A stretch of 37,803 nt of DNA, from positions 1 through 37,803 of the forward strand of contig JALHPV010000033.1 in the NCBI GenBank assembly GCA_022842285.1. Direction: 5' to 3'. The position numbers and the translations under genes were made by a program. Shown in pieces: positions 3,200 through 31,145 of the stretch (the stretch's first letter is position 1; every line of letters begins with the position of its first letter). The DNA comes from Kofleriaceae bacterium. Lineage in GTDB: Bacteria; Myxococcota_A; Polyangia; Haliangiales; Haliangiaceae. The notes beneath the pieces are model-generated. The model was not told the origin of the DNA and did not search any database. It saw nothing but the letters and a program-made list of their open reading frames with translations.

Positions 3200-3203
<4 letters not shown>
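2043..3203 (-). CDS. Globin-coupled sensor histidine kinase
   Basis: A 386-residue soluble kinase. Residues 1-150 match the protoglobin/globin-coupled-sensor pattern: an N-terminal helix with FDSEDTTRVARLLERLRP, DRYLELLAN, GVIEWLETSLRGPHD, then YVGRLHAGARHIPEAW, where H93 aligns with the proximal haem-ligand His of the family block RLRIGRVH. HisKA follows with the H-box LAHEIRNPLN (phospho-acceptor H181), then a HATPase with N-box DHLIRNAIE (292-300), G1 DSGPGIP and G2 GGTGLGMSI. No membrane segment is seen. The ATG overlaps the stop of the NtrC gene (ATGA), so the pair is translationally coupled and is almost certainly a cognate two-component system. The frame is open far upstream, but that part only shadows the NtrC gene. 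Haem binding and ligand (O2, NO, CO or redox) are inferred. Confidence 0.88.
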
Positions 3204-4600
<1,397 letters not shown>

Positions 4601-4613
4601 GAGCGACGACTGT

Positions 4614-4629
4614 AGCGATTCCCGTGCCG
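4614..4629 (-). promoter_or_regulatory. Putative sigma54 (-24/-12) promoter of the NtrC gene
   Basis: On the minus strand it reads CGGCACGGGAATCGCT, against consensus TGGCACG-N4-TTGCW. GGCACG is perfect, GG-N10-GC spacing is exact, and the -12 box has one mismatch. The first base is 29 nt before the ATG, close to the 28-nt spacing seen across the island. Predicted transcription begins almost at the start codon. Confidence 0.6.
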
Positions 4630-4634
4630 CCCCA

Positions 4635-4703
4635 CGCGCAGGTTTGGCGCATCGCCGCCCGCAAGTTTTGCGCCACTGGTGCATGGCGCGCAAACCTTGC
4701 GCG
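4635..4703. promoter_or_regulatory. Triple dyad operator/enhancer upstream of the NtrC gene
   Basis: Three 17-bp near-palindromes share the form CGCGCAA-N3-TTGCGCG. The site at 4687-4703 is perfect (7-bp arms, spacer acc). The site at 4658-4674 is CCCGCAA-gtt-TTGCGCC. The site at 4635-4651 is CGCGCAG-gtt-TGGCGCA. They fill the 105-bp gap between the hybrid-kinase stop and the NtrC start, directly upstream of the -24/-12 element at 4614-4629. They are plausible enhancer sites for the NtrC protein acting on its own gene. Related sites occur elsewhere in the island. Confidence 0.55.
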
Positions 4704-4705
4704 GT

Positions 4706-6637
4706 TTAACTCTGCGGAACCAGGAGCTCTTCGAGCGCCGCGGTCAGCTCCGTCACCTTGACCGGCTTGGTGAGATAGCGATGAAAGCCGGCATCGACGG
4801 CCCGCTTCCCATCGCTGGGCAGGGCGGCCGCGGAGAGTCCGAGGACGGGGATGGAGCGGGTCTCGGGACCTGCCTTCAGGATCCGGACGGCGTCCACCCC
4901 GCTCATCCCCGGCAGGTTGATGTCCATGATGACGACCGTCGGGCGGTGGGCCCGAATCAGCTCCAGCCCGATCTCGGCCGTCGGCGCGGTGATGAGCTCG
5001 ACCGAGCTCAGCTCGTCCATCACATCCCGCATGAAGGCGATGTTGGACGGATTGTCCTCGACGTAGACCACCTTGAAGCGAGCGGACTCGCCTTCCGTCA
5101 AGGGCGAGAGGGGGCCGGACCGCTGACGCCCGGGGAGTGGCTCGTCGGCGGGCACCTCGTGGAGCGGCACCTCGATCCAGAACGTCGAGCCCCGTCCCTC
5201 CTCCGTGGAGAAGCCGACGCGGCCGTGCATCAGCTCTGCGAGGCGCTTGCTGATGGCCAGGCCGATGCCAGTGCCCTCGATCGGACCGGTCTCCTGACCC
5301 GCTCGCTGGAACGGTTCGAAGATGCGATCGCGCTTGGCGTCGGGGATGCCGAGCCCGTTGTCGATGGTGGAGATCCGGACCCGCGTCCCGACCGGCTTCA
5401 CGTCGAAGCGCAGGAAGCCATCCTTTCGACCGTACTTGATCGCGTTCGAGCCGAAGTTCATCAGGACCTGCGCGAGCCGGGTGCGATCTGCGGTCACCAC
5501 GATCGGGCCATCCGGGAGCGGCGCGAGCTCCATCTGGATCTGGGCGCGCGTCGCCATCGGCTCGAGCGTGGTCAGCACCTCCCGCAGGACGTCTTCCAGG
5601 GAAACCTGTTCGATCGAGACGGAGACATGGCCCGACTCGATCTTGGCGAGATCGAGCACGTCATCGATGAGGCGAAGCAGGTGCTCTCCACCTCGCAGGA
5701 CGTGCTGGACGCGCTCGATCTGACGGGCATCGAGTGGGTTCCTGCGATCACGCTCGAGGAGCTGTGCAAACCCGAGCACCGCGTTCAGCGGCGTCCGGAG
5801 CTCGTGGCTCATCGACGACAGGAACTCGCTCTTGGCGGCGCTCGCCGCCTCGGCCGCCGCCCGCGCTTGCCGCAGATCCGCTTCGCGCTGCACGTCATCG
5901 GTGACGTCGGCGATGGTCGATACCGTGCCGTGCTCGGCGGTCTTCCGTGCGGTCACGCGCAGGTAGCGACCGGTGCCCGTGCGCACGTCGAGCATGCCGA
6001 TCGGATTCTGGTGGTACGCGAACCAGCGGCGCAGCAACGCATCCTTGGATTCACTGCTGAAGTCGAAGGCGCCGCTCTCCACCGCCGAGCGCAGCAGATC
6101 ATCGAAGCGCATCCCCACGATGGCGTGTCCGAGGTCGCTGCCCAGGAGCTCGCGCGCGGTGCTATTCACCATCACGACGCGGTCATGCTCGTCGAAGAGC
6201 GCGAACGCATCACTGACGGAATCGACCGCCGACGTGAGATACGCGGTGGCGCGGCGCTTCTCTCCCTCGAGCACGCGGCGCTCCGAGATGTCGCGAATGC
6301 CCGCCGTGATGAGCAGGCCCCGCTCGGTCTCGATGGGAGACAGGCTGATCTCGACGGGAAACTCGGTGCCGTCCTTGCGTGCTCCGTGGAGGTCCAGCCC
6401 CGAGCCCATCGGTCGGAGCCGCGGCGCCGCCGTGAACGACGCCATGTGCTTGGCGTGATACGGCCGCACGCGCCTCGGCACCAGCAGGTCGATGGTCCGA
6501 CCGATCAGCTCGTCGCGCTCGTAGCCGAACATGCGGGCGCCCTCGGCGTTCACCAGCACGATCCGTCCCGAGGCCTCGCACACGATCAGGCCGTCCGGTG
6601 CTGCATCGATCAGCTCGCGGAAGGGCAGGTCATCCAT
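4706..6637 (-). CDS. PAS-PAS hybrid histidine kinase with C-terminal receiver
   Basis: A 643-residue protein without membrane segments. PAS domain 1 spans about 5-120 (DAAPDGLIV, GRIVLVN, DGTEFPVEIS, ending DISERR); PAS 2 spans about 131-250 (DSVSDAFALFDEHDRVVMVN). HisKA follows with H278 in MSHELRTPLN, then HATPase (N-box NFGSNAIKYG, G1 DNGLGIP, G2 EGTGIGLAISKRLAELM) and a receiver domain with D572 in MDINLPG and K624 in LTKPVK. The ATG at 6637 overlaps the stop of the upstream REC-kinase by 8 nt; an in-frame GTG at 6655 is the alternative start. It is transcribed with the other kinases ahead of the NtrC gene and probably feeds into the same pathway. The PAS ligand cannot be read from the sequence. 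Confidence 0.92.
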   Translation of the reverse strand: MDDLPFRELIDAAPDGLIVCEASGRIVLVNAEGARMFGYERDELIGRTIDLLVPRRVRPYHAKHMASFTAAPRLRPMGSGLDLHGARKDGTEFPVEISLSPIETERGLLITAGIRDISERRVLEGEKRRATAYLTSAVDSVSDAFALFDEHDRVVMVNSTARELLGSDLGHAIVGMRFDDLLRSAVESGAFDFSSESKDALLRRWFAYHQNPIGMLDVRTGTGRYLRVTARKTAEHGTVSTIADVTDDVQREADLRQARAAAEAASAAKSEFLSSMSHELRTPLNAVLGFAQLLERDRRNPLDARQIERVQHVLRGGEHLLRLIDDVLDLAKIESGHVSVSIEQVSLEDVLREVLTTLEPMATRAQIQMELAPLPDGPIVVTADRTRLAQVLMNFGSNAIKYGRKDGFLRFDVKPVGTRVRISTIDNGLGIPDAKRDRIFEPFQRAGQETGPIEGTGIGLAISKRLAELMHGRVGFSTEEGRGSTFWIEVPLHEVPADEPLPGRQRSGPLSPLTEGESARFKVVYVEDNPSNIAFMRDVMDELSSVELITAPTAEIGLELIRAHRPTVVIMDINLPGMSGVDAVRILKAGPETRSIPVLGLSAAALPSDGKRAVDAGFHRYLTKPVKVTELTAALEELLVPQS

Positions 6638-7739
6638 GACGAGGAAATCTTGCACAGAACACGGCTCCGGGCTCCGCGTCCTCCACCCAGATCTCGCCGC
6701 CGTGGGCTTCCATGACCAGCTTGCAGAACGACAGCCCTAGCCCGCGGTTGTGACTCTTCGAGCGATCTCCACTCGTGAAGCGGTCGAAGACGGACTCCTT
6801 GCGATCGACGGGGATCCCGCTCCCCGCGTCACGCACGCGCAGCTCGACGCCGTGGCGGGTATCGGTGAGAGCGACGGTCACGGCCGTCCCGGCCGGCGCA
6901 TGGCGGAGCGCGTTCTCGACGAGGTTGGCGAGAAGCCGGTGCACGAGATCACGATCCGCGAGCACCTCGTTGGCGCCGATCGAGGCCACGAGCTCGACAT
7001 CTGCATCGGAGGCCATCGGCCGCAGCTCGTCGAGAACCTCGGTGACGAGGGGGCTCGTGGGGACCAGCTTCACGTTCGGAGCCAGCCGCCCCTCGTCCGC
7101 CTTGCTCACGTCGAGCAGGTTCGTGATCATCCGCATCAGCGCACGGGTCTCGGCGCGCATGGCGGCGGCGGCGGTCTTGGAGCGCTCGCTGCCGGTGGCA
7201 TCCCGGAGGATGCGCTGGGCGAGCAGATCGATCGTCCCGACCGGATTCTTCAGGTCGTGCACCAGGAACGTCGCGAGCTGCTCCTTCTGATACTGGAGGC
7301 GCTGCAGGTGATCGCGTTGCTGCTTCAGCTCGGCGACCAGCTCGAGCCGTTCGCCGGCGAGCCGCCGGATGTGCAGGGCGGCGCGCAGGCGCGCCACCAG
7401 CTCGTCGGGACGGAGCGGCTTCGTCAGGAAGTCATCGCCACCCGCAGCCACCGCCCGGTCGAAGGTGTCCAGCTCGCGGAGGGCCGTCGCGAACACGATC
7501 GCGACCTTCGAGCCGCCCGCCAGTGCGCGGATGCGCTCGCAGGCCACGAGGCCATCGATGCCCGGCATGCGCACGTCCATGACGATGCAGTCCACGCGCT
7601 CGCGCTCGAACTCGGCGATCGCCTGCGCTCCGTCCACCGCCTCGCGCACGGAGAAGCCTTCGTCCTCGAGGGTGGCTCGAGCCAGCGCGCGGTTCTGCGC
7701 GTTGTCATCGACGACGAGGACCGTGACCACATCCAGCAT
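6630..7739 (-). CDS. Hybrid sensor kinase with N-terminal receiver (REC-HisKA-HATPase)
   Basis: A 369-residue cytoplasmic protein. The receiver comes first (VLVVDDN at 7-13, D55 in MDVRMPG, K108 in LTKPLR), then a short coiled linker (ERLELVAELKQQRDHLQRLQYQKEQ), HisKA with H161 in LVHDLKNPVG, and HATPase (N-box NLVENALRHAP, G1 DAGSGIP, G2 GLGLSFCKLVMEAHGG). A receiver upstream of a kinase suggests a middle step in a phosphorelay or control by another kinase. It is the first gene of the minus-strand signalling operon and is divergent from the cytochrome lipoprotein gene at 7862. No -24/-12 match lies at the island spacing before it. A TATGAG hexamer 13 nt before the ATG is a possible -10 box, without a good -35. 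Confidence 0.9.
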   Translation of the reverse strand: MLDVVTVLVVDDNAQNRALARATLEDEGFSVREAVDGAQAIAEFERERVDCIVMDVRMPGIDGLVACERIRALAGGSKVAIVFATALRELDTFDRAVAAGGDDFLTKPLRPDELVARLRAALHIRRLAGERLELVAELKQQRDHLQRLQYQKEQLATFLVHDLKNPVGTIDLLAQRILRDATGSERSKTAAAAMRAETRALMRMITNLLDVSKADEGRLAPNVKLVPTSPLVTEVLDELRPMASDADVELVASIGANEVLADRDLVHRLLANLVENALRHAPAGTAVTVALTDTRHGVELRVRDAGSGIPVDRKESVFDRFTSGDRSKSHNRGLGLSFCKLVMEAHGGEIWVEDAEPGAVFCARFPRHG

Positions 7740-7765: not shown

Positions 7766-7782
7766 TGCGCAACGGGTGCGGG
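7766..7782. promoter_or_regulatory. Near-dyad resembling the NtrC-gene sites
   Basis: TGCGCAA-cgg-GTGCGGG matches the CGCGCAA-N3-TTGCGCG form at 11 of 14 arm positions. It lies in the divergent region between the REC-kinase and the cytochrome lipoprotein, 52 nt upstream of the -24/-12 element at 7834. Confidence 0.3.
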
Positions 7783-7833
7783 TCGTTTCACGCTGAAGCG
7801 AAGAACTTGCGCATTCCCGGCCCCCGGCCCAGG

Positions 7834-7849
7834 TGGCATGGGCCTGGCA
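7834..7849 (+). promoter_or_regulatory. Putative sigma54 promoter of the cytochrome lipoprotein
   Basis: It reads TGGCATGGGCCTGGCA: TGGCA in the -24 box, GG-N10-GC spacing, and TGGCA against TTGCA in the -12 box. Its first base is exactly 28 nt before the ATG at 7862. The match also helps choose that start. Confidence 0.5.
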
Positions 7850-8700: not shown

Positions 8701-8716
8701 TGGCGCGTGCCTTGCT
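8701..8716 (+). promoter_or_regulatory. Putative sigma54 promoter of the leader peptide-SDR unit
   Basis: TGGCGCGTGCCTTGCT differs from TGGCACG-N4-TTGCW at one position only. It is 28 nt before the ATG of a 13-codon open frame at 8729 and 71 nt before the SDR ATG. Confidence 0.65.
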
Positions 8717-8728
8717 CTCTCGGCGTGC

Positions 8729-8770
8729 ATGAGCATCGACATCTCGGACCACGCCACGAAGGCGGCGTGA
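8729..8770 (+). CDS. Putative 13-residue leader peptide, coupled to the SDR gene
   Basis: ATG at 8729 opens MSIDISDHATKAA and stops at 8770, one base before the SDR ATG at 8772. The ATG is exactly 28 nt from the first base of a near-perfect sigma54 promoter, the same spacing as at full-length island genes, so a leaderless transcript would begin at this codon. It could couple translation into the SDR gene. It is too short to judge from sequence alone. Confidence 0.4.
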   Translation: MSIDISDHATKAA

Positions 8771-8771
8771 C

Positions 8772-9536
8772 ATGACGACATCTACCCATGCCCGCGACAA
8801 GGTCGCGCTCGTCACCGGAGGAGCCTCCGGTATCGGCCGCGCGACGGCAGAGGCCTTTGCGGCGCGCGGCATCGCCGTCGCGGTCGCGGATCTAGACGTC
8901 GCGGGCGGCGAGGAGACCGTCGCTCTCGTACACAAGCTAGGGGGACGGGGCATCTTCATCCGCACGGATGTGTCCTCGTCGGTGTCCGTGCACACGATGG
9001 TCGAGCGCACCATCGCGGAGTATGGCCGCCTCGATATCGCCTTCAACAACGCGGGCATCGAGGGTGAGTCGGGCTCCGTCCTCGACTGTAGCGAGGCGAA
9101 CTGGGATCGCGTGCTCACCGTCAATCTGAAGAGCGTGTGGCTGTGCATGAAGCACGAGATTCCACACATGCTCCACGCGGGCGGCGCGATCGTGAACTGC
9201 GCGTCGATCGCTGGTCTGGTCGGGTTCCGGAACCTGCCGGCCTACGTCGCCAGCAAGCACGGCATCATCGGTCTCACGCGCGCGGCCTCGCTCGAGCTCG
9301 CCCGCTCGAACATCCGGGTGAACGCCGTCTGCCCGGGCGTGATCCAGACGCCGATGATCGATCGAGCCACGCATGGCGATCCGGCCCAGCGCGCCGGATA
9401 CGCCGCGGCCGAACCCGTGGGACGACTGGGTGGGGCGTTCGAGGTCGCCGACGCCGTCGTGTGGCTCTGCTCGCCCAACGCGTCGTTCGTGACCGGCATC
9501 GCGCTTCCCGTCGACGGCGGCTGGGTCGCGCAATAA
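8772..9536 (+). CDS. Short-chain dehydrogenase/reductase
   Basis: A 254-residue classical SDR: cofactor motif TGGASGIG (15-22), NNAG (92-95), catalytic S145, Y158 and K162 (AYVASK), and PG near 188. Aspartates at 40 and 42 after the second strand (VAVADLDVAGG) favour NAD(H) over NADP(H). Length and motifs fit the 3-oxoacyl-ACP reductase / glucose 1-dehydrogenase-like group; the substrate cannot be assigned. AAGGCGG lies 7-13 nt before the ATG as a ribosome binding site, which it shares with the end of the small leader frame. Expression probably depends on the sigma54-type promoter at 8701. Confidence 0.92.
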   Translation: MTTSTHARDKVALVTGGASGIGRATAEAFAARGIAVAVADLDVAGGEETVALVHKLGGRGIFIRTDVSSSVSVHTMVERTIAEYGRLDIAFNNAGIEGESGSVLDCSEANWDRVLTVNLKSVWLCMKHEIPHMLHAGGAIVNCASIAGLVGFRNLPAYVASKHGIIGLTRAASLELARSNIRVNAVCPGVIQTPMIDRATHGDPAQRAGYAAAEPVGRLGGAFEVADAVVWLCSPNASFVTGIALPVDGGWVAQ

Positions 9537-9951: not shown

Positions 9952-9967
9952 TAGCGACCCGCGCTAC
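9951..9967. terminator. Short inverted repeat between convergent genes
   Basis: GTAGCG-N5-CGCTAC lies across the ends of the cytochrome lipoprotein and the convergent USP gene. It may act as a weak bidirectional terminator. No T-run follows on either side. Confidence 0.3.
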
Positions 9968-10839
9968 GAGCGGTGGCGCGCGACGAGCACGGGCGTCCGC
10001 GCGTGTCGCACGACCTTCTCGGCGACCGAGCCCAGGATGATGCGCGAGAGGCCGGTCCGGCCCTCGCTGCCGATGACCACGAGGTCCGTCGCCGTCTGCG
10101 CGTCGAGCTCGTCGAGCACGCCGGCGCCCGCAGTGCCGACCCGGACGCTCGTCCGGATGGCGACCTTGGTCAACGTCCGCAGGGTTGCTTCCCAGCGGGT
10201 GAGCTCTTCGCGAGCCTGACTGTCGAGCAACTGCATGTAGGGCGTGTCGAGCGGACGACCGGAGTACATCACCGGCGGCTCGATGACGTGGAGCAGCGTG
10301 ATGCCAAGCCCTCCGGGCGCGGTCAGGGCGGCGGCGGTCTCCATCGCGAAGCGTGACGACTCGGAGAAGTCGACCGGGCAGAGCACGGTGCGGTACGGCT
10401 GCGGTTCGGCGTTGCGAACGGCGAGGACCGAGCACGGCGCGTGGCGGATGACCTTCTCCGCCACGGAGCCGAGCAACACGCGTCCGAGCCCGGTGCGGCC
10501 ATGTGTTCCCACGACGCATAGATCGAAGGCCTGTTGCCCGAGAAGATCGGTGATCTCCCGCCAGGCCATGCCGTTCGCGAGCCGCAAGGTCACATCGCGA
10601 GCACCCGCGAGGCGTGCGTGTTCTTCGGCGTGGGCAAGCTCGGTCGCCGCCGCGTCGGAGATCGCGGGATAGAGCGGAGCCGCGAACGCGTCCGCCGACA
10701 AGGCGACCGCGGGCAGATGCCAGACGTGGAGGATCGTCAGCTCGCCGGCAGACTCGGCCGCGAGGTGGGCGGCGGTGCGGAGCGCGAGCTCCGACCCAGC
10801 CGAGAAGTCAGTGGCGCAAAGGATCTTCTTGAACGGCAT
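9964..10839 (-). CDS. Tandem universal stress protein (two USP domains)
   Basis: A 291-residue protein made of two UspA-fold domains (about 1-143 and 147-290). Each has the nucleotide-binding aspartate in the first strand (ILCATDFS; VLCPVDFS) and a complete ATP loop G-x2-G-x9-G-S (GTHGRTGLGRVLLGS; GSEGRTGLSRIILGS), so both domains should bind ATP. Tandem USPs act in energy-limited, hypoxic or dormant states. AGGAG precedes the ATG. It is divergent from the HhH protein gene, and the shared control region holds an 11-bp inverted repeat. It is a close structural paralogue of the tandem USP at 15824. Confidence 0.93.
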   Translation of the reverse strand: MPFKKILCATDFSAGSELALRTAAHLAAESAGELTILHVWHLPAVALSADAFAAPLYPAISDAAATELAHAEEHARLAGARDVTLRLANGMAWREITDLLGQQAFDLCVVGTHGRTGLGRVLLGSVAEKVIRHAPCSVLAVRNAEPQPYRTVLCPVDFSESSRFAMETAAALTAPGGLGITLLHVIEPPVMYSGRPLDTPYMQLLDSQAREELTRWEATLRTLTKVAIRTSVRVGTAGAGVLDELDAQTATDLVVIGSEGRTGLSRIILGSVAEKVVRHARTPVLVARHRS

Positions 10840-10933: not shown

Positions 10934-11788
10934 GTGACGAACGACCGCATCGCCACCGTTTTCGAGCAAGTCGCCGCACTCCTCGAACAGCAAGGCGCGT
11001 CTGCGCACCGGGTGCGCGCGTGGCGAGCTGCTGCGCAAGCCCTGCGCGAAACGACGAAGGAGGTCGCCATGGTCTACCGGGACGCGGGCCGGCCGGGCAT
11101 CGAAGGCCTGCCGCACATCGGCCCCAAGCTGGCGGCCGCCGTCATCGAGCTCCTGCTCACGCGGCGGTGTTCCACGCTCACCCGCCTCCAGGGTGATACC
11201 GAGCACGTGCTCGCCGGTGTCCCCGGCATCGGTCCGACGCTCGCGTCCCGCATCCACGCTCATCTGGGAATCGAGACTCTCGAGGAGCTCGAGCTCGCCG
11301 CGCACGATGGCCGTCTGACCAAGGTGCCGGGCTTCGGGCGTCGGCGGCTCGAGATCGTCCGCGACGTGCTCACGCAGCGCCTGGGCCGACGCCAGCCACC
11401 GTCGTCGAGCGTGCGGCTGCCTCCCGTGGAGCTGCTGCTCGAAGTCGACGCCATGTATCGGCAGGGCGCGGCGACGGAGTCCTTGCCCATGGTGGCCCCC
11501 CGTCGCCTGAATCCTTCGGGCGCCGCCTGGCTGCCGATGCTGCACACCGAACGCGACGGGTGGCACTTCACCGCCCTGTTCTCGACGACGCCGCTCGCGC
11601 ACCAGCGCGGACGCACGCGCGACTGGGTCGTCCTGCTGTTCCACCTGGAGGGGCAGCCCGAGCATCAGGCGACCGTGGTCACCGAGTGGCAGCAACCGCT
11701 GCGCGGCTTGCGGGTAGTGCGGGGGCGAGAGCGCGAATGCCGCGAGCACTACGCTCTGATGAGCGGACACGGGCAACACGCGGCGTGA
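10934..11788 (+). CDS. Helix-hairpin-helix protein related to the N-terminal half of PolX
   Basis: A 284-residue protein. Residues 1-150 match the N-terminal DNA-binding part of family X DNA polymerases: NDRIATVFEQVAALLE and RVRAWRAAAQALRE (8-kDa-like domain), then three HhH-like turns, GLPHIGPKLA (58-67), GVPGIGPTLA (95-104) and VPGFGRRRL (131-139). The nucleotidyltransferase and PHP parts of PolX are absent. A C-terminal domain (about 155-275, with ALFSTTPLAHQ, RTRDWVVLLFH, VVRGREREC) replaces them; I recognise it only as a recurrent bacterial tail of unknown function. A DNA-binding role, perhaps DNA protection or repair in stress, is inferred. The GTG start is preferred because it opens the family-like sequence and sits 28 nt from a promoter motif. 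Confidence 0.8.
   Translation: MTNDRIATVFEQVAALLEQQGASAHRVRAWRAAAQALRETTKEVAMVYRDAGRPGIEGLPHIGPKLAAAVIELLLTRRCSTLTRLQGDTEHVLAGVPGIGPTLASRIHAHLGIETLEELELAAHDGRLTKVPGFGRRRLEIVRDVLTQRLGRRQPPSSSVRLPPVELLLEVDAMYRQGAATESLPMVAPRRLNPSGAAWLPMLHTERDGWHFTALFSTTPLAHQRGRTRDWVVLLFHLEGQPEHQATVVTEWQQPLRGLRVVRGRERECREHYALMSGHGQHAA
11032..11048. promoter_or_regulatory. Near-dyad inside the HhH gene
   Basis: TGCGCAA-gcc-CTGCGCG has one mismatch per arm relative to the CGCGCAA-N3-TTGCGCG dyad. It is coding sequence, about 110 bp inside the gene and 170 bp from the USP promoter candidate, a distance from which an enhancer could act. Confidence 0.25.
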
Positions 11789-12770: not shown

Positions 12771-12786
12771 AGCATGCGCGATGCCA
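12771..12786 (-). promoter_or_regulatory. Putative sigma54 promoter of the CBS-VIT operon
   Basis: The minus strand reads TGGCATCGCGCATGCT: TGGCA perfect, GG-N10-GC exact, ATGCT in the -12 box. Its first base is 28 nt before the ATG at 12758. It overlaps the 3' end of the upstream exported-protein gene by one base pair window only (stop at 12789). Confidence 0.5.
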
Positions 12787-12788
12787 GG

Positions 12789-13433
12789 TCACACGTCGGG
12801 CGGGATATGCGGCACGACGACGCGATCGATCCGACCGTTGGGGACGTAGCTGCGGCCCACCGGATCGAACGTGAACGCGTACGTACCTCCCGCCGGTGGC
12901 TGGAAGAACAGCCGATTGTCGCGGAGCCAGATGGCGCCCTCCGCGTGGGATTCGCCCTCCCAGGTCTCGACGACGGCGACGAAGACGGCGTCAAGGACGT
13001 GCGCTGGCCCCGGCCGATAGAACGCGACCTCCGTCGCCGCCTCGCTTCGTCCTCCGCGCACGGTGGCGAGCACGACGACCGGAGCGCCGTCGAGTCGGGC
13101 CACCGCCAGCGCGGTGATCTCGTCGGCGCTGCCGCTGCACGGCGAGCCCGGGAGTCGACCGAGCACGTGTCCCGCTCCGTCTCGAACCGTCACCCCATCG
13201 AGAAAGGACGCAGAAATCGTCTCGGCGCCCTCCGCGGCCGCAACGTTTGCGCGGACGACCCAGGTCTGGACCGCTCCGACGCTGCACCCCTCGGGCGGCT
13301 CCGGGGCGCTCGGCACGAGGCTCCCCAGGCGCACGTCGACGAGACCATGCACCCACGGGAGCGCTCCCGGGGGAGGCGCATCCGCGACGGTGGCCCCGAG
13401 CGCGACGATCGAAGCGATGGCGGTGCGGCTCAT
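12789..13433 (-). CDS. Exported protein of unknown function
   Basis: A 214-residue protein beginning MSRTAIASIVALGATVADA, a probable cleavable signal peptide. The mature part is beta-rich (DGAPVVVLATVRGG, EVAFYRPGPA, GTYAFTFDPVGRSYVP) with two Cys that could pair. No family is recognised. The ATG is divergent from the HemG-like gene across only 56 bp, and this gap contains two back-to-back -24/-12 elements. That control region ties it to the island even though its function is unknown. Confidence 0.72.
   Translation of the reverse strand: MSRTAIASIVALGATVADAPPPGALPWVHGLVDVRLGSLVPSAPEPPEGCSVGAVQTWVVRANVAAAEGAETISASFLDGVTVRDGAGHVLGRLPGSPCSGSADEITALAVARLDGAPVVVLATVRGGRSEAATEVAFYRPGPAHVLDAVFVAVVETWEGESHAEGAIWLRDNRLFFQPPAGGTYAFTFDPVGRSYVPNGRIDRVVVPHIPPDV
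13237..13253. promoter_or_regulatory. Near-dyad about 200 bp from the divergent promoter pair
   Basis: GCCGCAA-cgt-TTGCGCG has a perfect CGCAA-N3-TTGCG core. It lies inside the coding sequence of the exported protein, 193-225 bp from the two back-to-back -24/-12 elements, a typical enhancer distance for sigma54 activators. Confidence 0.3.
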
Positions 13434-13445
13434 GCCCCCACGAGC

Positions 13446-13461
13446 AGCACGACGCGTGCCG
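13446..13461 (-). promoter_or_regulatory. Putative sigma54 promoter of the exported-protein gene
   Basis: The minus strand reads CGGCACGCGTCGTGCT: GGCACG perfect, GG-N10-GC exact, GTGCT in the -12 box. Its first base is 28 nt before the ATG at 13433 and is directly adjacent to the opposing element at 13462. Confidence 0.58.
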
Positions 13462-13477
13462 TGGCGCGGACGTTGCT
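13462..13477 (+). promoter_or_regulatory. Putative sigma54 promoter of the HemG-like gene
   Basis: TGGCGCGGACGTTGCT differs from TGGCACG-N4-TTGCW at one position. Its first base is 28 nt before the ATG at 13490. There is no Shine-Dalgarno between it and the ATG, which fits a leaderless transcript. Confidence 0.65.
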
Positions 13478-13489
13478 CGGGTCGACGCC

Positions 13490-14053
13490 ATGAGCCGATA
13501 TCTCGTCGTCTACGCGTCCCACTTCGGACAGACCCGCAAGATCGCCGACCGGATCGCGGACACGATCCGGGCGCGTGGGCACATCGCCGAGGTCGCGGAT
13601 GTCGTCGCCTGCAAGGTCCCGCCGCCGGTGCAGGACTACGACGTCCTGGTGGCCGGCAGTCGGGTCGAGCTCGGCCGTCATGACGGGGTCCTGGTCGAGT
13701 ACCTCCGCGAGAGTCGCCAGGCTCTCGCCTTCATGCCGTGGGCCTTCTTCTCCGTCAGTGCCGCGGCCTCGACGCCCAACGCCGGCGCGGATCCAAACGG
13801 CTACATGGAGGTGCTCTTCTCCGACCTCGGCTCGCGGCCGACGCGGGCCAAGGCCTTCGCGGGCGGGCTGCCGTACCGGAAGTACAACTTCATCCTCCGC
13901 TTCATCATGAAGCGCGTCTCGCGAAGCGCCGGGCATACGACGGATACCTCCCGGAACCACGAGATGACCAACTGGGACGACGTCCGCGCCTTCGCCGAGG
14001 ACCTCGCGACCCTCTCCCCGCTGCGTCGCCCCGACCCGCGGATGATGGCGTGA
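13490..14053 (+). CDS. Flavodoxin-domain protein, HemG-like protoporphyrinogen IX dehydrogenase
   Basis: A 187-residue protein. YASHFGQTRKIADRIA (8-23) is the FMN phosphate-binding loop of long-chain-like flavodoxins. The C-terminal half matches menaquinone-dependent protoporphyrinogen oxidase HemG closely: FSVSAAAST where HemG has FSVNL, then FAGGLPYRKYNFILRFIMKR and a final DTSRNHEMTNWDDVRAFAEDL (HemG-type TDT...TDW...FA). HemG oxidises protoporphyrinogen IX to protoporphyrin IX at the inner membrane with quinone as acceptor, which allows haem synthesis without oxygen. The family call is good; the exact reaction is inferred, since related flavodoxins have other roles. It fits a low-oxygen, haem-linked regulon. 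Confidence 0.8.
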   Translation: MSRYLVVYASHFGQTRKIADRIADTIRARGHIAEVADVVACKVPPPVQDYDVLVAGSRVELGRHDGVLVEYLRESRQALAFMPWAFFSVSAAASTPNAGADPNGYMEVLFSDLGSRPTRAKAFAGGLPYRKYNFILRFIMKRVSRSAGHTTDTSRNHEMTNWDDVRAFAEDLATLSPLRRPDPRMMA

Positions 14054-15795: not shown

Positions 15796-15811
15796 TGGAC
15801 GCGGGGTTGCA
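15796..15811 (+). promoter_or_regulatory. Putative sigma54 promoter of the second tandem USP
   Basis: TGGACGCGGGGTTGCA: TGG, exact GG-N10-GC spacing and a perfect TTGCA; the -24 box is weaker after TGG. Its first base is 28 nt before the ATG at 15824. GGAG at 15814-15817 would lie upstream of a leaderless start. Confidence 0.48.
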
Positions 15812-22176: not shown

Positions 22177-22192
22177 AGCACGAAGCAGGCCA
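22177..22192 (-). promoter_or_regulatory. Putative sigma54 promoter of the OsmC gene
   Basis: The minus strand reads TGGCCTGCTTCGTGCT: TGGC, exact GG-N10-GC spacing, GTGCT in the -12 box. It lies 33 nt before the ATG at 22159, for a predicted leader of about 7 nt. Confidence 0.45.
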
Positions 22193-26236: not shown

Positions 26237-26358
26237 GTTGAGCCGATCACGCCCGGTGCGACTTGGCTGGCTCATGATTTGCCTATGACCCTCCGAGTGA
26301 AGCAACCTGCTGACGCGACGTCCAAGGTCGCGTCACCTACCCCAGGGGAAGAACCAGT

Positions 26359-27090
26359 ATGAAGAAAGTTGTCCTAGGAACGTTCATCGCGGCCGTCATG
26401 TCGCAGGCCGCAGGTTGCATCTTCGTCACCGATGACGACGGCGAGAATGCGGCCATCGACGTCGGCTGGCAGTGGCAAGAGGTCGCCTCGAACGGCGCGC
26501 TCTCCGCCTCGCAGTGCCCGCCCAACGCTTCCATTTCGCTTCACACGCAGGAAGTGGATGGGTTCGGCGATCCCATCGGGCAGGAGATCATCGACATCTA
26601 CGACTGTGAGGACGGCAGCGCCATCACGCCGCCGCTGCCGCCGGGCCGGGTCTCTACGTTCCTCACTGGCACCTCCGACGTGGGGTCCTTCACGAGCTTC
26701 CTCCAGTTCACCGATCTCACCACCGTGAACCAGGTGGTCGACTTCGAGCTGATCAACAACGGTGGCTACATCGTGTTCAACTGGGATCTCGTCGGTGAGT
26801 CGGGTGCCCCGCTCGACTGCGAAGACGTGGTCGATCTCGACGGCGTCGGCATCATCTCCACGTCGGTCACCACGCCGACGATCGCCTTCGACGATCAGTT
26901 CGAGTGCAACCAGTACTACGGCACCACGGCGCCGCTCCCCGCCGACAACTACACGGTGGCGGTCGACGCGTTCAACGCGGCGAACGAGTCGCTGGTGACC
27001 GAGGCGGTCACCCGGACGCTGACCGTCGGTGCGCTGAACGATCTCAACGAAGAGCTCGGCGTCGCCGTCATCGAAATCGCGGGTCAGTAG
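26359..27090 (+). CDS. Secreted lipoprotein, tandem paralogue A
   Basis: A 243-residue protein with lipoprotein signal MKKVVLGTFIAAVMSQAAGC (lipidated Cys 20) and a short acidic linker (FVTDDDGENAA). The mature domain is beta-rich: IDVGWQWQEV, CPPNASISLHTQEVD, GQEIIDIYDCEDG, PLPPGRVSTFLTG, NQVVDFELINNGGYIVFNWDL. The next gene encodes a near copy. Function unknown; an outer-membrane or surface role is likely from the signal. AGGGGAAG serves as ribosome binding site. Confidence 0.85.
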   Translation: MKKVVLGTFIAAVMSQAAGCIFVTDDDGENAAIDVGWQWQEVASNGALSASQCPPNASISLHTQEVDGFGDPIGQEIIDIYDCEDGSAITPPLPPGRVSTFLTGTSDVGSFTSFLQFTDLTTVNQVVDFELINNGGYIVFNWDLVGESGAPLDCEDVVDLDGVGIISTSVTTPTIAFDDQFECNQYYGTTAPLPADNYTVAVDAFNAANESLVTEAVTRTLTVGALNDLNEELGVAVIEIAGQ

Positions 27091-29638: not shown

Positions 29639-29644
29639 TACGTT
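29639..29644 (+). promoter_or_regulatory. Possible -10 element of the FHA-activator gene
   Basis: TACGTT ends 7 nt before the ATG at 29652, and there is no Shine-Dalgarno. This resembles the arrangement at the two preceding genes (leaderless type). It is weak as a single match. Confidence 0.25.
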
Positions 29645-29651
29645 GCCCGCG

Positions 29652-31145
<1,494 letters not shown>

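What the first reader, a model, noticed from the sequence alone, without database searches (positions are those of the whole stretch)
13434..13489. Two sigma54 promoters back to back within a 56-bp divergent gap
The gap between the exported-protein gene (ATG 13433-) and the HemG-like gene (ATG 13490) is 56 bp, exactly two times 28. The minus-strand element occupies 13446-13461 and the plus-strand element 13462-13477, with no base between them. Both match well (CGGCACGCGTCGTGCT and TGGCGCGGACGTTGCT). Such abutting -24 boxes would have two holoenzymes competing for the same face of DNA, so the pair may be alternately, not jointly, active.
Basis: partly seen in the sequence, partly recalled or inferred. 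Interest (0 to 1): 0.75.

Follow-up and report, generated by a model that had tools for sequence, protein, structure and literature searches.

The report
Abutting divergent leaderless sigma54 promoters
Two promoters for the specialised sigma factor RpoN sit back to back, with nothing between them, and appear to start both messages almost exactly at their start codons; this compact, leaderless design recurs across a soil myxobacterial family but seems not to have been described.

Summary
The two -24/-12 elements lie at the stated coordinates (minus 13446-13461, plus 13462-13477), abut exactly, and each begins 28 nt before its ATG. The genome has rpoN and roughly 65-70 sigma54 activators. The 56 bp are "2 x 28" because in this family (Kofleriaceae, Myxococcota) most sigma54 promoters sit 28-32 nt before the start codon, predicting a leader of 0-6 nt, mostly without a Shine-Dalgarno sequence. 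In 834 kb of the genome, 23 of 42 strong sites have a start codon 26-34 nt downstream; a reversed control is flat. Both elements are conserved individually upstream of orthologs in relatives, where the two genes are not neighbours. The exact 56-bp geometry recurs without mismatch in four other Kofleriaceae genomes (Usp/ferritin, CBS/small ORF, DUF202/hypothetical) and never in the control pattern. The locus resembles the Myxococcus Nmp hypoxia regulon: the published NmpR operator GCGCA-N5-TGCGC ranked first of 5120 in a blind search of eight cluster promoters. "Alternately, not jointly active" is untested: steric exclusion is plausible, but other back-to-back pairs have 1-28 bp between elements. 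No start-site data exist. Verdict: real; a new variant of a known kind.

The parts
13446..13461 (-). sigma54 -24/-12 element CGGCACGCGTCGTGCT of the exported-protein gene (GG 13460-13459, GC 13448-13447; predicted TSS about 13435)
   Evidence: conserved 28-29 nt before the start in relatives
13462..13477 (+). sigma54 -24/-12 element TGGCGCGGACGTTGCT of the HemG-like gene (GG 13463-13464, GC 13475-13476; predicted TSS about 13488)
   Evidence: conserved in Myxococcota relatives
12789..13433 (-). exported protein of unknown family (214 aa), N-terminal signal-like stretch right at the ATG
   Evidence: no Pfam or NCBIfam hit; orthologs in 5 same-genus genomes
13490..14053 (+). HemG-like flavodoxin (187 aa)
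   Evidence: Flavodoxin_5 1.7e-26, above cut-off; PRK11104 HemG model 103 bits, below its cut-off of 142
13238..13252 (.). NmpR-like activator site CCGCAACGTTTGCGC (1 mismatch), inside the exported gene, 224 nt upstream of the hemG element
   Evidence: consensus from PMC11841059
3200..4600 (-). NtrC-type response regulator (receiver, sigma54 AAA+, Fis HTH), candidate activator
   Evidence: 78-86% identical in relatives' loci
4614..4629 (-). sigma54 element CGGCACGGGAATCGCT, 29 nt before ATG 4600 of the regulator
4636..4702 (.). three NmpR-like sites (4636-4650, 4659-4673, 4688-4702) upstream of the regulator; the last two are 14 bp apart
4706..6655 (-). hybrid histidine kinase (PAS-PAS-HisKA-HATPase-receiver)
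6630..7739 (-). receiver-histidine kinase
7834..7849 (+). sigma54 element TGGCATGGGCCTGGCA, 28 nt before ATG 7862 of a protein with two CxxCH motifs; NmpR-like sites at 7767-7781 and 7798-7812
8701..8716 (+). sigma54 element TGGCGCGTGCCTTGCT, 28 nt before a 13-codon mini-ORF (8729-8770) that ends 1 nt before the ATG of an SDR gene (8772)
11003..11047 (.). two perfect NmpR-like sites 15 bp apart upstream of the Usp gene 9964-10839 (minus)
12771..12786 (-). sigma54 element TGGCATCGCGCATGCT, 28 nt before ATG 12758 of the CBS gene
15796..15811 (+). weaker sigma54-like element TGGACGCGGGGTTGCA, 28 nt before ATG 15824 of a tandem Usp gene
   Evidence: 1 mismatch; below the matrix threshold

Best explanation
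The 56-bp gap consists of two complete, abutting, divergent sigma54 promoters, each spaced so that transcription starts about 2 nt before the ATG (leader 0-3 nt). Both messages, for the HemG-like flavodoxin and for a small exported protein, would therefore be leaderless or nearly so, and initiation at a 5'-terminal AUG replaces Shine-Dalgarno initiation. The gap is 2 x 28 because 28 bp from the -26 base to the ATG is the smallest leaderless sigma54 promoter, and this pair has no spare base. Because no activator site fits in the gap, activators must bind outside it, inside the flanking genes; the best candidate site for hemG is 13238-13252. The likely activator is the NmpR-type response regulator encoded in the same window, so the pair probably belongs to a low-oxygen/energy-stress regulon (Usp, CBS, heme, cytochrome). 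Shown: sequence, spacing, genome-wide and family-wide recurrence, conservation in relatives, operator enrichment. Inferred: actual start sites, leaderless translation, the activator at this pair, the oxygen signal, and whether occupancy is mutually exclusive (sterically likely, regulatory meaning unknown).
For: rpoN with the ARRTVAKYR box is present and the sigma54-activator family gives 79 matches, about 65-70 of them full domains. Spacing peak at 28-29 nt in this genome (28: 13 and 29: 11 of 100 listed) and in G019 (28: 21, 29: 11 of 100); offsets 16-27 empty for ATG-ORFs at score 12 or more, reversed matrix flat. Background test without the window. Only 4 of 28 such genes have an SD-like 4-mer in the spacer, while the genome as a whole shows SD enrichment at -15 to -6. 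HemG-like orthologs carry a sigma54 site in almost all Myxococcota relatives and in essentially none of 22 checked from other phyla; in Kofleriaceae mostly at 28-29 nt. Exported orthologs carry it at 28-29 nt. Exact 56-bp geometry in four other Kofleriaceae genomes, none at a 5-bp-longer spacer. Blind search of inverted repeats ranks GCGCA-N5-TGCGC first of 5120, the published NmpR operator (PMC11841059); paired sites 12-18 bp apart: 3 in the window, 0 in 796 kb elsewhere.
Against: No transcription start or expression data. The scoring matrix is my approximation of the published sigma54 consensus. The minus element departs from consensus at -26 and -15 and scores only 10.1. Only one single-mismatch activator site lies near (224 nt upstream of the hemG element), none within 500 nt upstream of the exported-gene element, and the other exact-56 pairs have no NmpR-like site within 700 nt. 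Two Kofleriaceae HemG orthologs (L070, L071) have an SD in the spacer although their site is at 29 nt, which fits poorly with a strictly leaderless message.
Confidence: 0.78

Rival explanations
1. Only the plus (hemG) element is a working sigma54 promoter; the minus element is a chance GG-N10-GC match and the exported gene is transcribed otherwise.
For: The minus element has 2 mismatches and a score of 10.1, and such sites are common in this GC-rich window. No strong activator site is upstream of it.
Against: It sits exactly 28 nt before a signal-peptide-type start, where sites scoring 10-12 exceed background about 14-fold. Orthologs in G008, G012, G013 and G015 have elements at 28-29 nt before a start.
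Confidence: 0.13
2. Either-or switch: both promoters work but the abutting -24 boxes make holoenzyme binding mutually exclusive, so the genes are expressed alternately.
For: Zero spacing; GG centres 4 bp apart. The exact zero spacing recurs in 5 family genomes and was not found exactly at +5 bp.
Against: Most other back-to-back pairs have 1-28 bp between elements, and several divergent leaderless pairs enclose shared activator sites, suggesting co-activation. Exclusive binding on one DNA copy does not by itself make expression alternate across a population, since sigma54 complexes turn over.
Confidence: 0.2
3. The motif near the start codon is not a promoter but a translation-initiation or other regulatory signal.
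For: Fixed distance to the ATG.
Against: The same motif lies 62 and 106 nt upstream, ahead of ordinary SD sequences, in Polyangia HemG relatives. Activator operators lie upstream of it. It matches the RpoN consensus including the invariant 10-bp GG-GC distance.
Confidence: 0.03
4. The abutment is simple genome compaction with no regulatory meaning: leaderless promoters are short, so divergent genes can end up 56-90 bp apart. (A statement about meaning, compatible with the best explanation.)
For: A continuum of gaps from 0 to 28 bp between elements.
Against: Zero-spacer pairs occur 5 times against 0 exact for one tested longer spacer at the same 28/28 geometry, a small sample.
Confidence: 0.55

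Closest known systems
Myxococcus xanthus NmpRSTU oxygen-utilization regulon (PMC11841059)
   Same: NtrC-type regulator with neighbouring kinases; CBS, Usp and heme-enzyme targets; operator GCGCA-N5-TGCGC; operator pairs 14-16 bp apart here against a preferred 14-15 there.
   Different: HemG-like instead of HemN; no protoglobin sensor found among the window's kinases. The paper describes clear intergenic promoters and, for pilR, a long leader; leaderless starts are not mentioned in the parts read.
Divergent sigma54 promoters of E. coli (zraP/zraSR spacer, PMC8743547)
   Same: RpoN holoenzyme binds a spacer between divergent operons.
   Different: That zraP/zraSR uses shared enhancer sites and ordinary leaders is from memory, not tested; here there is no room for enhancers or leaders in the gap.
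Leaderless mRNAs of S. meliloti, Bradyrhizobium and Leptospira (PMC3616915, PMC4842269, PMC5243855)
   Same: Start codon at or within a few nt of the mapped transcription start.
   Different: The Bradyrhizobium set is associated with an extended -10 motif, and its authors state no specific promoters are described for leaderless genes; a sigma54-specific leaderless class was not reported in the passages read.

Membership tests
sigma54-dependent promoter | GG (-24) and GC (-12) 10 bp apart in a TGGCN7TTGCW context | tested here: met
   Plus 0 mismatches, minus 2 mismatches with GG/GC intact.
sigma54-dependent promoter | genome encodes RpoN and AAA+ activators | tested here: met
   a candidate activator in the same window.
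sigma54-dependent promoter | activator (enhancer) sites upstream | tested here: inconclusive
   One 1-mismatch NmpR-like site at 13238-13252 for hemG; none within 500 nt upstream of the exported-gene element.
sigma54-dependent promoter | transcription lost without RpoN or with mutated GG/GC | not testable with these tools
   Needs experiment.
leaderless mRNA gene | transcription start at or within a few nt of the start codon | tested here: inconclusive
   Predicted from -12 position: 13488 (ATG 13490) and 13435 (ATG 13433); not measured.
leaderless mRNA gene | no Shine-Dalgarno before the start | tested here: met
   Spacers CGGGTCGACGCC and GCTCGTGGGGGC lack GGAG/GAGG/AGGA; 4 of 28 in the genome set.
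Nmp-type hypoxia regulon | NtrC-like regulator with associated kinases at the locus | tested here: met
   The M. xanthus NmpR sequence itself was not aligned.
Nmp-type hypoxia regulon | operator GCGCA-N5-TGCGC, paired 14-15 bp apart | tested here: inconclusive
   Met for the locus: three pairs in the window (gaps 14, 16, 15 bp), none in 796 kb elsewhere, rank 1 of 5120. Not met as a pair at this promoter pair itself: one single 1-mismatch site.
Nmp-type hypoxia regulon | protoglobin sensor kinase NmpU | tested here: not met
   Window kinases show PAS, HisKA, HATPase and receiver domains only; the rest of the genome was not searched for it.
HemG (menaquinone-dependent protoporphyrinogen oxidase) | passes the curated HemG model | tested here: not met
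   PRK11104 103.1 bits, cut-off 142; Flavodoxin_5 passes. Hence HemG-like only.

The most novel reading that the evidence does not exclude
In Kofleriaceae, sigma54 RNA polymerase has become a dedicated producer of leaderless mRNAs, and abutting divergent pairs act as one-occupant switches: only one holoenzyme fits at a time, and an activator bound inside a flanking gene decides which of two leaderless messages is made.
Probability: 0.15. Interest if true: 0.85.

Novelty: new variant of a known kind. Interest (0 to 1): 0.62.

Why it matters
Sigma54 promoters are the tightly regulated, activator-dependent class, and leaderless translation is usually discussed for sigma70-type promoters. A whole family whose sigma54 genes mostly start at the AUG would link the two, let start sites and start codons be predicted from sequence to within a few bases, and make questions about leaderless translation under stress testable with a switchable promoter. 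The abutting pairs are also the tightest divergent sigma54 arrangement seen here and a clean test of whether two holoenzymes can exclude each other.

Tried and rejected
Motif counts alone: GG-N10-GC is at chance level in this GC-rich DNA (790 against 780 expected), so motif presence without position was rejected as evidence. The first look at upstream regions read several minus-strand loci in the wrong direction; corrected. Strict pair pattern across the class: outside the family, counts equal the reversed control (about 28 against 26), so back-to-back pairs are not a class-wide feature. NmpR-like sites at 2 mismatches are at chance in the window (76 against 83 expected), so only 0-1 mismatch sites and pairs were used. 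NmpR-like sites near the other exact-56 pairs: none, so a common activator for all such pairs was rejected. A literature search for back-to-back divergent sigma54 promoters returned nothing; subscription papers are not held, so absence of a report is weak evidence of novelty.

Full report
OBSERVATION. The sequence between the two start codons is 56 bp (13434-13489) and holds CGGCACGCGTCGTGCT on the minus strand at 13446-13461 and TGGCGCGGACGTTGCT on the plus strand at 13462-13477, with no base between them. Each element starts exactly 28 nt before the A of its ATG. The plus element has no mismatch to TGGCN7TTGCW; the minus element has two. Minimal GG-N10-GC matches are at chance frequency in this 68% GC window, so motif presence alone would not be convincing.

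THE GENOME CAN USE THEM. The assembly (7.9 Mb, 550 contigs) encodes RpoN with an intact ARRTVAKYR box. The sigma54-activator domain gives 79 matches, of which about 65-70 are full-length domains. Two activators lie in the window: an NtrC-type response regulator (3200-4600, minus) with two neighbouring kinases, and an FHA-domain activator (29643-31145). Named relatives of the HemG-like gene in the same genus and family are labelled Kofleriaceae, Myxococcales or Deltaproteobacteria, so the organism is taken to be a Kofleriaceae myxobacterium.

WHY 28. In 834 kb of this genome, 42 sites scored 12 or more with an approximate sigma54 matrix. The distances from site start to an ATG opening a coding-like ORF pile up at 28 (6), 29 (5) and 30-34 (9), with none from 16 to 27, while a reversed matrix gives a flat profile. 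Counting GTG too, 23 of 42 have a long ORF starting 26-34 nt downstream, 3 more a short ORF at 27-32 nt, 5 an ORF at 35-150 nt and 11 nothing. Whole-genome pattern lists show the same peak in G000 (28: 13, 29: 11, 32: 12 of 100) and in G019 of the same family (28: 21, 29: 11 of 100). Across 189 genomes of the phylum, the 28-nt spacing against a 48-nt spacing gives 18 against 3 in G000, 32 against 0 in G019, 9 against 3 in G030 and 13 against 1 in G198, but is near parity in many other lineages. With -12 assigned to the C of the GC, a 28-nt spacing places the start 2 nt before the ATG. The proteins read from these ATGs very often begin with signal or lipoprotein peptides, which supports the start codons. 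Only 4 of 28 have an SD-like 4-mer in the spacer, while genes in general show a clear SD peak at -15 to -6. The 56-bp gap is thus two minimal leaderless sigma54 promoters end to end.

HOW SURE FOR EACH ELEMENT. With the window left out, sites of score 10-12 at 28 nt number 4 against 0.28 expected, and sites of 12 or more number 4 against 0.15. The minus element scores 10.1 and the plus element 14.3. The HemG-like gene is preceded by a sigma54 site in nearly all Myxococcota relatives checked (28-29 nt in most Kofleriaceae, 35-106 nt with longer leaders in others; L072 has none and L073 a weak one) and in essentially none of 22 relatives from other phyla, where L113 has one weak match. Orthologs of the exported gene have the element 28-29 nt before a start in G008, G012, G013 and G015, in different surroundings; in G008 the gene directly follows the hybrid kinase. 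The two genes are therefore each under sigma54 control in relatives, but their pairing is particular to this genome.

THE PAIR ARCHITECTURE RECURS. A strict back-to-back pattern with 0-30 bp between elements occurs 15 times in 30 genomes of the family against 1 for the reversed control, and at control level in the other 260 genomes of the class. In most of the family cases at least one side, usually both, has a start codon at 28-32 nt; several look like the same orthologous pair (a long lipoprotein-like gene and a gene of about 140 codons) with the element spacer varying from 5 to 28 bp. The exact window geometry, ATGs 56 bp apart with abutting elements, is found without mismatch in G012 (CBS gene and small ORF), G014 (DUF202 and hypothetical), and G027 and G029 (tandem Usp and a ferritin-like gene). 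The Usp/ferritin pair keeps 29 of 32 element bases but only 12 of 24 spacer bases between two species. A pattern 5 bp longer gives no exact match in the same genomes.

REGULATION. The gene content (NtrC-type regulator, kinases, Usp, CBS, VIT, HemG-like, a protein with two CxxCH motifs) resembles the Myxococcus xanthus NmpR oxygen regulon, whose operator is GCGCA-N5-TGCGC, preferably paired 14-15 bp apart (PMC11841059). Ranking all 5120 combinations of 5-mer inverted repeats and spacers over eight promoters of the cluster put this very sequence first. Pairs of such sites 12-18 bp apart occur three times in the window and not once in 796 kb elsewhere. HemG orthologs in 8 of 13 Myxococcota relatives have a 0-1 mismatch site within 400 nt, against 0 of 15 in others (GC content differs between the groups, so this comparison is soft). 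In relatives the locus is recognisable (regulator 78-86% identical), and several divergent leaderless pairs enclose the operators between them. At the pair under study no operator fits between; the nearest good one lies in the exported gene, 224 nt upstream of the hemG element. Activation from inside the flanking coding sequence is therefore inferred, not shown.

DOES ONE EXCLUDE THE OTHER? The -24 GG centres are 4 bp apart, about 0.4 turn, so the claim of the same face is not right, although steric overlap of two holoenzymes seems likely from the known extent of sigma54 footprints (from memory). Whether this has regulatory effect is open. The spread of spacers in other pairs and the shared operators in relatives favour joint regulation with compaction; the recurrence of exact abutment leaves an either-or device possible.

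LIMITS. No transcript data; approximate matrix; unnamed draft genomes; one tested alternative spacer only; the activator assignment rests on operator similarity and gene content, and the M. xanthus NmpR sequence was not compared directly.

Noticed in passing
window 8701-8772 (+): Sigma54 element 28 nt before a 13-codon ORF (MSIDISDHATKAA) whose stop lies 1 nt before the ATG of the SDR gene: a possible leaderless leader peptide coupled to the enzyme gene.
   Followed up: partly
L130 (G000:C13:12543-12577): Second back-to-back leaderless sigma54 pair in the same genome (spacer 5 bp), a lipoprotein-like gene of 582 codons and a gene of about 148 codons, with apparent orthologous pairs in several Kofleriaceae.
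   Followed up: partly
L028:10314 (+): Strong sigma54 site 31 nt before a 69-codon ORF with a GG-type leader and a Cys/Asn/Gly-rich core (LETVAGGCKSCNNN...), resembling a RiPP precursor.
   Followed up: no
L158:7814-7878, L154:1727-1851, L157:15839-16034, L155:9247-9421: Divergent leaderless sigma54 pairs in relatives with two or more NmpR-like operators lying between the two promoters.
   Followed up: partly
window 29643-31145 (+): A second sigma54 activator, FHA-domain type, near lipoprotein-like genes at 26359 and 27125 and a sigma54-like site at 26268.
   Followed up: no
window 22177-22192 (-): Sigma54-like site TGGCCTGCTTCGTGCT 33 nt before ATG 22159 of a 175-codon ORF.
   Followed up: no
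L167:2702-2763 and L168:2590-2651: Exact 56-bp abutting sigma54 pair between a tandem Usp gene and a ferritin-like gene, with elements conserved and spacers diverged between two species.
   Followed up: yes
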